Part shown: piece after piece, positions 6,301-64,000 of the stretch
Layout: each line of letters opens with the position of its first letter
How positions within the stretch are numbered: position 1 is the stretch's first letter
Position numbers and translations under genes: made by a program
From: Lepas anatifera
Lineage: Eukaryota > Arthropoda > Thecostraca > Lepadidae
Reading direction: 5' to 3'
NCBI GenBank assembly: GCA_034440635.1
Contig: JAOTON010001038.1
Location: 5,650,501-5,714,500, forward strand
DNA length: 64,000 bases
The notes under the pieces: model-generated
Databases searched by the model: none
Told to the model about the DNA's origin: nothing
The model's input: the letters and a program-made list of their open reading frames with translations, nothing else

Positions 6301-9300
6301 GTTAATGTTATACACTCTTGCCTATCACGATTTTTTAATATTTTGTAGTGACGGCGCCACGCGCGGTGGCTGCCAAAGTATATTATTAATATGGGCTATT
6401 ATACGGGTCCTTTAATTGTGTTAAACTTTTAATTTGCTGTTAGGTTTTAATTGACTGGTTTTAAATTGACTTAAGGTTTTAATTGAACTGTTTTTAATTT
6501 GGTGTTATTTTTTAAACTGAATTAAATGTAGACAACCACGCTGGGTAGCGAAGAAACAGAAGGCGGCTTCAGATATGCAGTATTTAGCTCTGCCAAAAGT
6601 AATATGTATAATTTTTGGTCAGGTCAATTTTGACGTCACTAGAGGTCAAATTATGTTATCGTAGGAAAACAGTGGCAACTCAAGTCCTGTATTTAAAAAA
6701 AAATTTTTGCGTTCCCTTTGCCGGGAACATGTTTGTGCTAGTGGCTAGTATAATTCATACAACGCACTCACACTATGCACAGAGCGGAAGTTTCCCTTTG
6801 CCGACACCCTTAACGGGACAGCGGCACCGCACTCGGCGGGTCATAGGCTGCTCCAGTCTCCCCAAGCCGCAGCGCCCGACATAGGCCGAGCCCTCACATG
6901 AGGGCCGCGGGCGGGAGACCAGACCGGTGGATCACTTTAAAGGCCGATCAGGCCCGTGCACCCACAAACAGGGACGCCGGCTGGCACGGCGTTGATTCCA
7001 CTGCTGCGGCGCGCACTCCCCAGTGTACCGCTATCTCCTGGGTAGGAGGCGGCCGCGGAAGAGGCTGCCACAGGTCAGCCTTGATCCAGGGGCCTTCCAC
7101 ACCCAAGCATGGCGCCTTTGCCAGCTGCGCCACGGGGGTGGCCAACTTAAGTCGTGTATTGTAACCGCTGAAAGAGCAGACTTGTGGAACATATATAAAC
7201 ATATATAAGTCCGATCCACTGATGTATCGCATAATCTTGCGAATTCAAATCCTAAAATTGACCTGACCTGGCCTTGGGACAGTGTCAGGGTCAAGGTCAT
7301 CATCGGTCATATTCCGTATCTTTTGAACCGCAGTGACAATCCGAACACTCTGATGGCAAATATAAAAGTTCTAGAGCACTAAGGAAATCGGCCACCTGAT
7401 TAGAATACTGAGGCATGGCACCCACCTGACTATAATACTGAGGCGGGGCACCCACCTGACTAGAGTACTGAGGCGGGGTACCCACCTGACTAGAGTACTG
7501 AGGCGGGGTACCCACCTAACTAGAGTACTGAGGCGGGGTACCCACCTGACTAGAGTACTGAAGCATTCAGAGGGGTACCCACCTGACTAGAGTACTGAGG
7601 CGGGGCACCCAACTGACTATAATACTGAGGCAGGGAACCCACCTGACTAGAGTACTGAAGCATTCAGAGGGGAACCCACCTGACTAGAGTACTGAAGCAT
7701 TCAGAGGGGTACCCACCTGACTAGAGTACTGAGGCAGTCGCAGTTGAAAGAAGCAGGTCTGAGCAGTCGGCAGGCCGTCCACCGGCTTGTCCACCTTCAT
7801 CACCTGCCGAAGTCGCAGCCCGGTCACCAGGAAGCACGTGGTGGCATACTCTGCCGGAGCGGCTCACTGGCCTACCCGCGCAAGTCCACCAGACAACTGT
7901 CCACACAGCACCATTTGTGATTCTCTCAGGTACATCATTGTTACTCCTAAATGGGCTAATATGGGTGTTCAGCTCTATTTACGTCACTGAAGTGCTGTCC
8001 TACTTAAACAGGCTACGATAACGGGTATACAGGCCGTGGGCAATCCAAACCACCAGTGGGCAGCTCACCCCACTATCCTACCTCCAAACAGGAAGTCAGT
8101 CACCGTCCTATTTTCCGACATTTCAACATGACTCATTTCCCGCCAACCCGCTGCGAGGCGCGCGGTTCGACCTATGGCGGAAAGGAGGGGGCAGTAGGCG
8201 TACAGCCGCCACGAGACATTGACTGACATTATCACCGATGACAGCCTGACGCCGAACTGCGCCATACCAGTTCGTCATACTTCAACTGAAACACCACACC
8301 CACACGCCACGGTAGGCCTCACCCAAACGCGGGACTTCCCCCCGGACAGAGAGGCGACATTTGACGAGTGAGCCGGCCGGTCGGCCTCAGTGTCCACCTG
8401 TGAAGGAGTGAGTGGCCTCTGACCTGGAAGCGCTGGGAGAGGTCGGCCAGGTTGGCCGGCAGCCGGCTGCGACCCGAGACGAACCGCATGAACAGCACCC
8501 TCTCGGAGTCGGAGAAGCTCTCCAGCACCGCCCACAGCCACTGCGCCAGCGGATGCTGCTCGTCCAGCTCGCGGTACCTGCAGGGACGAGGGTGTCACAG
8601 AGGTACTGGCAGGGACCGGGGCGTTACCGAGGGACCGTCAGGGACCGGGGCGTTACCGAGGTACCGGCAGGGACCGGGGCGTTACCGAGGTACCGGCAGG
8701 GACCGGGACGTTACCGAGGTACCGGCAGGGACCGGGGCGTTACCGAGGTACCGGCAGGGACCGGGGCGTTACCGAGGTACCGGTAGGGACCGGGGCGTTA
8801 CAGAGGTACCGGCAGGGACCGGGGAGGACACCACTGCTGAAACCCTGCCGCCCCGCCCGAGGCGGCGGAAGGACTTGCATCCGCCAGGGATGGAAATATA
8901 CAGCCTATGGCAATAAATATCGAAATCTACTACAGCTAAGTGCGTGAGGACACTGTTGGTACAACCGGAGCCAAGAGAAAGGCGATGCGCAAACACCACT
9001 ACATGACCCACGGCAACAATACTTCACATGCAAGCCCCCAGACAACAATCTTCCATATTTGAACCTACACCTTACAACAGAAAGTAAATCCAGATTGCAG
9101 ACGAACATCCTAGAAAGTTACTAGAGGTGTTGCTATGTTGATTGCCCTCAATCCGCTCTGGCCTGCATCCACTCGACGTAGCTGCAAACTCGAGTCCCAC
9201 TCACCTGACAATGGTCTTGAGGAGCGGCACCGAGATGGTAGGAAGTCCACAGACCAGCTGCTCCAGATGCTGCGCCGTGATGAGGGACAGCAGCGGCACC

Positions 9301-64000: not shown

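What the first reader, a model, noticed from the sequence alone, without database searches (positions are those of the whole stretch)
7390..63720. Tandem arrays in HERC1 are seeded at splice junctions
Seen directly: roughly 28 of the 46 mapped introns carry tandem repeats that touch, or lie next to, an exon-intron junction. In about 20 the unit itself copies the junction: exon end plus donor (exons 3, 7, 20, 33, 34, 36, 38, 40, 46) or acceptor plus exon start (exons 2, 7, 11, 17, 19, 23, 24, 29, 30, 31, 37, 44, 45). Each intron has its own unit sequence, so this is not one satellite that spread. Ordinary minisatellites would not be expected to pick both 5' and 3' splice sites of one gene repeatedly. 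Inference: a local duplication process acts at splice junctions (for example R-loop or paused-polymerase breaks, or repair using the repeated AGGT/CAGG core), or array growth is tolerated only where the spliceosome can still choose a copy. Tandem duplication at AGGT sites is a known proposed route to new introns; an arrayed form of this scale is, to my knowledge, not described.
Basis: partly seen in the sequence, partly recalled or inferred. Interest (0 to 1): 0.88.

Follow-up and report, generated by a model that had tools for sequence, protein, structure and literature searches.

The report
Splice-junction-anchored repeat arrays in HERC1
In this gene, from what is likely a barnacle, private blocks of repeated DNA sit at the edges of the coding pieces and often copy the splice signals there, up to dozens of times, so the gene is likely a natural test of how cells pick the right splice site.

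Summary
The window carries most of HERC1 on the minus strand; the best protein match is barnacle HERC1 (74% identity). I mapped the gene, including about 33 kb outside the window. Of 72 introns mapped at both ends, 46 carry tandem arrays; 24 arrays run across a splice junction, and 28 of 71 introns hold a near-copy of one of their own junctions. Measured in non-array sequence, the largest array crosses or lies within 30 nt of a junction in 40 of 46 introns (19 expected). GC content does not remove this. Other genes show it more weakly (9 of 31 arrays, 3.9 expected). Units are private. None of 58 arrays spans both ends of its intron, so this is not intron birth. Copies mostly keep their splice dinucleotides (226 of 252) and show no reading-frame constraint, so they look like unused decoys. 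No strand skew, so R-loops are not supported. Likely cause: local tandem duplication favoured at exon edges, tolerated because the extra copies fall inside the intron. No RNA data were available. Nearest known: human boundary repeats and intron gain by tandem duplication. New variant of a known kind.

The parts
3202..63956 (-). HERC1 exons in the window, last exon 3317-3202; gene continues to about 97 kb in window coordinates, outside the window
7392..7736 (.). array crossing donor at 7717 (20 exonic nt)
8573..8824 (.). 29-bp array ending on acceptor 8577 (5 exonic nt, not counted as crossing); its copies lack the AG (0 of 8)
9304..9697 (.). array crossing acceptor 9338 (35 exonic nt)
25864..25937 (.). 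(TC)37, sense (GA)n starting 3 nt inside donor 25940 (GTGAGAGA...); dinucleotide, not in the counts
26732..26772 (.). 2-copy 21-bp repeat abutting acceptor 26729; the junction 24-mer has an exact copy in the intron
27342..29406 (.). 24-bp x 86 array crossing donor 29385; 83 of 85 copies keep the GT
29554..29967 (.). array filling intron 29996/29543 from 29 nt after donor to 11 nt before acceptor
30194..30282 (.). 34-bp array crossing donor 30259
30691..31106 (.). 34-bp x 12 array crossing donor 31086
32392..32679 (.). 72-bp array crossing acceptor 32412
32979..33397 (.). 46-bp array crossing acceptor 33009
33932..34499 (.). (GA)284, sense (CT)n, ending 8 nt before acceptor 33924 as its pyrimidine tract; dinucleotide, not in the counts
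37408..38528 (.). 12-bp x 93 array ending 16 nt before acceptor 37392
40533..40727 (.). array crossing donor 40705
41414..45438 (.). 69-bp x 58 array crossing acceptor 41433; 57 of 57 copies keep the AG; unit found nowhere else by the genome search
46477..46570 (.). 49-bp repeat crossing acceptor 46497
47249..47337 (.). 32-bp repeat crossing donor 47317
52289..52427 (.). 61-bp repeat crossing acceptor about 52312 (donor of this intron not mapped, so left out of the counts of 72 introns)
53905..54078 (.). 83-bp repeat ending 9 nt before acceptor 53896 (donor not mapped, left out of the counts)
57595..58119 (.). 72-bp x 7 array crossing acceptor 57613
59630..61298 (.). 37-bp x 45 array filling intron 61307/59600, 9 nt from donor and 30 nt from acceptor
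62346..62529 (.). 22-bp array ending 27 nt before acceptor 62319
62989..63707 (.). 54-bp x 13 array crossing acceptor 62999
10463..24375 (.). 13.9-kb intron 24376/10462: comparison region, AT-richer, with transposon-like ORFs; its nearest array lies 1340 nt from a junction

Best explanation
HERC1 in this genome carries private tandem arrays that cross or lie within 30 nt of a splice junction in 40 of 46 array-bearing mapped introns; they likely arise by local tandem duplication favoured at exon edges, and the splicing machinery would have to use the copy that is continuous with the exon. Shown: positions, private units, near-absence of arrays from exon interiors, mostly intact splice dinucleotides in the copies, no reading-frame constraint, no strand skew, no array reaching both ends of an intron. 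Inferred: a short duplication by slippage or break repair takes in a few to about 60 exonic nt (median near 21) plus adjoining intron. Extra copies always fall on the intron side, so the coding sequence is unchanged, and copy number then drifts as in any minisatellite. The real site is the first donor or the last acceptor of the array; I infer exon definition (recalled, not tested) as the reason decoys are ignored. What makes exon edges prone is not settled. GC-rich exons (0.70) next to AT-richer introns (0.50) and short direct repeats in splice motifs are my preferred causes.
For: The result does not hang on the 30-nt limit: at 15 nt 35 of 46 (15.6 expected), at 50 nt 42 of 46 (23.2 expected). 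All 58 arrays: 24 crossing, 12.2 expected with the best period. The 34 non-crossing arrays also sit close to junctions: mean relative distance 0.24 instead of 0.5, KS P 2e-7. With GC in the model, odds against positions more than 80 nt away are 18 to 31 for crossing, 19 to 21 for within 30 nt and about 7 for 31 to 80 nt (51 arrays in introns up to 3 kb, wide intervals). Other genes: 9 of 31 arrays crossing or within 30 nt, 3.9 expected, P 0.009. Exon interior 98 of 5972 bp in arrays. Decoys: 226 of 252 copies in 26 arrays keep the GT or AG. No frame effect: best period divisible by 3 in 11 of 24 crossing and 15 of 34 non-crossing arrays; in-frame reading fully open in 3 of 20 and other frames in 6 of 40, 4 of 24 arrays dropped for want of a mapped exon. 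Private units.
Against: In raw coordinates array coverage is lower at junctions (about 0.21) than deeper in the intron (0.3 to 0.5), and junction 24-mers are copied no more often than intronic ones. A GC-weighted null gave 14.6 to 20.0 crossing arrays expected against 24 seen, P 0.002 to 0.13, and a simpler GC-adjusted odds ratio for crossing alone was 2.1 (1.03 to 4.1) to 3.7 (1.8 to 7.5). Crossing alone is not significant in the other genes: 4 of 31, 2.2 expected, P 0.17. Several myosin loci have no arrays at all. If introns were very short when the arrays arose and grew later, closeness to junctions would follow without any preference; 58 of 65 non-array pieces have no copy in the sampled sequence, which excludes only high-copy insertions. 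Some splice choices are open: with acceptor 65481 instead of 65514 the crossing count falls from 24 to 23.
Confidence: 0.6

Rival explanations
1. Arrays form anywhere in GC-rich gene DNA; they meet junctions only because introns are short and exons GC-rich, and exon interiors are purged by selection.
For: Exon GC 0.70, non-array intron 0.50, arrays 0.61; intron GC falls from 0.63 beside junctions to 0.46 inside; GC-weighted null expects 14.6 to 20 of the 24 crossing arrays; array share rises with GC over 33 loci, rho 0.51.
Against: With GC in the model, distance to the junction still carries odds of 18 to 31 for crossing and improves the log likelihood by 17 to 22 units over GC alone. Introns of at most 300 non-array nt still show 19 of 19.
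Confidence: 0.22
2. Splicing or transcription itself breaks the DNA at junctions (R-loops, paused polymerase) or repair uses the AGGT core.
For: Both donors and acceptors are hit (14 and 10 crossing arrays); crossing donors lean to AG|GT, 11 of 14 against 30 of 59.
Against: No G-over-C skew on the sense strand in crossing units (10 of 24 positive, means 0.06 for donors and 0.02 for acceptors); 7 of 11 crossing acceptors are not AG|GT; the junction sits at varied places in the unit (KS against uniform P 0.065).
Confidence: 0.12
3. The arrays are new introns born by tandem duplication of exon pieces with AGGT.
For: A known mechanism with in vivo support (PMC3443670, passages); units include exon ends.
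Against: 0 of 58 arrays reach both ends of their intron; crossing arrays leave other intron sequence on the far side.
Confidence: 0.02
4. The repeated splice sites are functional spare or alternative sites kept by selection.
For: Splice dinucleotides are slightly better kept than the rest of the unit, 0.937 against 0.891, per-array P 0.02.
Against: No period-of-3 bias and no open-frame bias; the small conservation difference may reflect CpG decay elsewhere in the unit (inference); 0 of 8 copies keep the AG in 8573-8824.
Confidence: 0.06
5. Assembly artefact.
For: Array lengths in long-read contigs can be wrong (general knowledge); about three exons show frame interruptions in this assembly (by eye).
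Against: The arrays have their own units with diverged copies; arrays at exon edges appear on several contigs; the Amphibalanus gene model holds two local duplications, one of them at a junction that carries an array here.
Confidence: 0.03

Closest known systems
Human internal tandem repeats at exon-intron boundaries (PMC2812944, passages seen, including part of the abstract)
   Same: Tandem units that include exon-intron boundaries and can alter splicing.
   Different: There: 27 intron modifications in recently duplicated primate genes, often with alternative transcripts. Here: 24 crossing arrays in one gene, extra copies apparently treated as intron, no frame constraint.
Intron gain by tandem genomic duplication at AGGT (PMC3443670, passages; PMC4974935 and PMC2891723, search listings only)
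   Same: Tandem duplication of DNA that includes splice-like sites.
   Different: No array spans both ends of its intron, so the arrays were most likely added to introns that already existed.
Tandem array of dual-specific AGGT splice sites in polyubiquitin UBC (PMC10809524, abstract and discussion read)
   Same: Many near-identical splice-competent sites in tandem.
   Different: UBC units are coding and splice stochastically in frame; here unit lengths and frames show no such constraint.
Daphnia neointrons with internal direct repeats (PMC4202315, passages seen, including part of the abstract)
   Same: A crustacean whose introns carry repeats attributed to break repair.
   Different: Those are 4 to 17 nt repeats in young introns, not arrays of up to 93 copies beside junctions.
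Ordinary GC-rich intronic minisatellites (general knowledge)
   Same: Unit size, divergence, copy-number range.
   Different: Anchored to junctions and private to each.

Membership tests
Minisatellite array | Head-to-tail units of roughly 10 to 100 bp with diverged copies | tested here: met
   (a few best periods exceed 100 bp as multiples of a smaller unit)
Dispersed satellite DNA | Same unit at many loci | tested here: not met
   2 of 1653 unit pairs similar; one unit searched in the genome, found only in its intron
Intron gain by tandem exon duplication | Both intron ends lie in copies of the same exon segment | tested here: not met
   0 of 58 arrays reach both junctions
Intron gain by tandem exon duplication | Intron absent from relatives | not testable with these tools
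   no gene structures of relatives held; intron positions not compared
Dual-specific splice-site array (UBC type) | Unit length a multiple of 3 so that any choice keeps frame | tested here: not met
   11 of 24 crossing arrays against 15 of 34 others by best period; 13 of 24 against 16 of 34 by smallest period
Dual-specific splice-site array (UBC type) | Copies used in RNA as 5' and 3' sites | not testable with these tools
   no RNA data
Boundary tandem repeats (human ITR type) | Repeat unit spans an exon-intron boundary | tested here: met
   24 arrays with at least 8 exonic nt
Boundary tandem repeats (human ITR type) | Copy number varies between paralogs or individuals | not testable with these tools
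   single assembly
HERC1 | Collinear match to HERC1 proteins over the gene | tested here: met
   P0001 matches run in order down the minus strand and P0002 covers the first part; most of the 120 listed hits are named HERC1 or HECT-type ligase, others hypothetical or unnamed

The most novel reading that the evidence does not exclude
In this lineage exon edges are mutational hot spots for tandem duplication. Splice junctions across many genes are being multiplied into private arrays holding tens of intact decoy sites, fast enough that different barnacles carry them at different junctions, and splicing ignores nearly all of them. The genome would be a standing experiment on exon definition and on how introns grow from their ends.
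Probability: 0.35. Interest if true: 0.8.

Novelty: new variant of a known kind. Interest (0 to 1): 0.6.

Why it matters
If general, it shows introns growing from their ends by repeated copying of their own splice sites, and gives many natural arrays in which the splicing machinery faces up to 86 similar donors or 58 similar acceptors and must find one. That makes splice-site choice, exon definition and tolerance of decoys directly testable in living animals. It would also explain why automatic gene models in such genomes can swallow duplicated exon ends, as the Amphibalanus HERC1 model seems to have done.

Tried and rejected
R-loop skew: no sense-strand G excess. Frame or stop selection on array copies: none. 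Erosion of decoy splice sites: not seen overall. Intron birth: rejected, 0 of 58 arrays reach both ends. A spread satellite: rejected.

An early impression that every array reaches about 20 nt into the exon was dropped: overlaps run from 3 to 61 nt and the exonic share of the unit is broadly uniform. My first conclusion that GC alone explains the crossing excess was withdrawn, which measure distance in non-array bases.

Rows dropped before counting: of 80 merged arrays in the gene span (all periods), 58 were kept (period at least 7, copies at least 1.8, lying in one of 72 introns mapped at both ends of 83 listed). The fits use 51 of the 58 (introns up to 3 kb). One search uses 71 of 72 introns (120 nt or longer). 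One donor was moved from 83670 to the first copy at 83745 because the homologue supports it (from then on; searches used the old value). Both ends of one intron were set aside as unmapped because the coordinates I had noted were not splice sites. Several junctions among the 72 rest on close choices; one that changes a crossing array was tested.

Exon edges in the other genes come from profile matches and splice scores, not proteins, and exons outside the matched domains are unmapped.

Full report
What is there. The window lies at C979:5650501-5714500 of a 1.04-Gb assembly. A draft gene model of the minus strand was searched against the protein database; the best hit is HERC1 of the barnacle Amphibalanus amphitrite, 74% identity over 76% of the 1173 residues searched; insects follow at 53 to 61% and vertebrates at about 55 to 57% for most of those among the 120 listed of 637 hits. 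I infer a barnacle or close relative. With that protein and, for the first part of the gene, with Periplaneta HERC1, I mapped exons across the window and the adjoining contig; the gene runs from about 3.2 to 97 kb in window coordinates. I list 83 introns, 72 with both ends fixed.

The arrays. In introns of at most 3 kb, 38.8% of the sequence is array of period 7 or more; exon interiors more than 40 nt from an end hold 98 of 5972 bp. Eleven 10-kb stretches taken at regular places on the same contig hold 4.5%, most of it in two stretches. Of 58 arrays in the 72 mapped introns, 24 include at least 8 exonic nt and 18 more lie within 30 nt of a junction in raw coordinates; none reaches both ends; 46 introns have an array. 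A 24-mer centred on the junction has a copy in its own intron at 15 of 71 donors and 14 of 71 acceptors, 28 of 71 introns in all, against 0 of 2840 shuffled queries.

Is the junction preferred? In raw coordinates it is not: coverage is about 0.21 in the first 10 intronic nt and 0.3 to 0.5 deeper, and intronic 24-mers at +6 to +120 are copied at 15 to 20 of 71 (donor side) and 16 to 24 of 71 (acceptor side), as often as or more often than junction ones. But an array that has grown pushes its flanks apart, so raw distance is misleading. I therefore counted distance in non-array bases. By that measure the 34 non-crossing arrays are strongly displaced towards junctions, mean relative distance 0.24 instead of 0.5, KS P 2e-7, 24 of 34 nearer the acceptor. 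Taking the largest array per intron, 40 of 46 cross or lie within 30 nt, 19.1 expected; crossing alone 23 of 46, 11.4 expected. Limits of 15 and 50 nt give 35 of 46 (15.6 expected) and 42 of 46 (23.2 expected).

Composition. Exons are 70% GC, non-array introns 50%, arrays 61%, and intron GC falls from 0.63 beside junctions to 0.46 inside. A GC-weighted null expects 14.6 to 20.0 of the 24 crossing arrays, P 0.002 to 0.13, and a two-class model leaves a crossing odds ratio of 2.1 to 3.7. Both comparisons put junction-near non-crossing arrays in the reference class. With distance classes and GC together, odds against positions more than 80 nt away are 18 to 31 for crossing, 19 to 21 for within 30 nt and about 7 for 31 to 80 nt; GC alone fits worse than distance alone (minus log likelihood 265.5 against 251.5 with the smallest period, 265.9 against 256.9 with the best). 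I conclude that GC contributes but that position relative to the junction matters more. These are exploratory tests on one gene, with limits chosen after the array table was seen.

Other genes. A myosin-head search found 79 matches. In 22 fetched myosin loci, 88 kb hold 30 arrays and 10% array. With one HECT locus added, 9 of 31 arrays cross or lie within 30 nt of a mapped junction, 3.9 expected, P 0.009; crossing alone 4 of 31, 2.2 expected, P 0.17. Some myosin loci, among them the fetched stretches of C1580, C326 and C896, have none. Array share rises with GC over 33 loci, rho 0.51. In these loci the effect is weaker and the exon maps are incomplete. More HECT loci were found (44 matches) but could not be fetched.

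How it works. Units are private to each intron, and the one unit searched in the genome occurs only in its own intron, so arrays most likely arise locally. Sense-strand skew is near zero, which argues against R-loops. The place of the junction within the unit is broadly uniform (KS P 0.065), so the break points do not seem fixed on the splice site. The copies keep GT or AG in 226 of 252 cases over 26 arrays, for example 57 of 57 acceptors in 41414-45438 and 83 of 85 donors in 27342-29406; in 8573-8824 it is 0 of 8. They show neither a period-of-3 bias (11 of 24 against 15 of 34) nor open frames (3 of 20 in frame, 6 of 40 out of frame). If inner copies were often used, a frame signature would be expected. 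The simplest reading is that duplications starting at exon edges are tolerated because the extra copies fall in the intron, and that splicing takes the exon-contiguous copy. Use in RNA is untested.

A second barnacle. The Amphibalanus HERC1 model contains two local duplications outside the RLD repeats, a perfect 14-residue one near residue 986 and a weaker one near 255. Of 120 HERC1 proteins, several of them isoforms of one species, only two others passed the filter, both at the RLD repeat spacing. By alignment the first falls near an exon end where this species has no array (junction 66468), and the second at the junction 77538 where this species has a 31-bp array. This fits repeat turnover at junctions in both animals, but it is a gene prediction, not RNA.

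What is known. Eight literature searches listed no paper whose title or abstract start describes arrays anchored at many junctions of one gene or of a barnacle genome; the listings were capped (for example 15 of 160 papers and 10 of 299), and I read parts of five papers. The nearest are human boundary repeats (PMC2812944), tandem arrays of dual-specific sites (PMC10809524), intron gain by tandem duplication (PMC3443670) and Daphnia neointrons (PMC4202315); PMC4039745, on worm minisatellites and splicing, was seen in passages. It is best called a new variant of a known kind.

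Noticed in passing
16852-20687 (minus): Open frames that look like a LINE-type endonuclease and reverse transcriptase (by eye, not tested) inside the 13.9-kb HERC1 intron.
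   Followed up: no
54665-55144 (minus) and 55122-55541 (plus): Two nearly identical open frames in inverted orientation, by eye like the GIY-YIG end of a Penelope-type element.
   Followed up: no
13721-14713 (plus): 330-aa open frame that looks like a C-type lectin (by eye), nested in the same large intron.
   Followed up: no
about 53833, 52900 and 35355 (minus): HERC1 exons whose match to the homologue seems to change frame within the exon; may be assembly errors or unmapped small introns. Left as they are.
   Followed up: partly
22686-23036: 175-bp unit in two copies 99% alike, more than 1.3 kb from the nearest exon.
   Followed up: no
25864-25937, 33932-34499 and 69732-69804 (the last outside the window): Dinucleotide arrays beside splice sites: GA after donor 25940, CT before acceptor 33924, and one 5 nt from donor 69809.
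   Followed up: partly
P0001 residues about 255-295 and 986-1013: The Amphibalanus HERC1 gene model seems to have swallowed duplicated exon ends.
   Followed up: partly
G000 myosin matches on C2003, C1554, C134 and C1308: Open frames of about 1100 to 1540 aa around myosin exons, suggesting stop-free introns or arrays between exons.
   Followed up: partly
L015:5000-10000: A GC-rich, array-laden stretch of the same contig; gene content not identified.
   Followed up: partly
L041:931-1592: 26-bp array about 60 nt after the donor side of a HECT-domain exon.
   Followed up: yes
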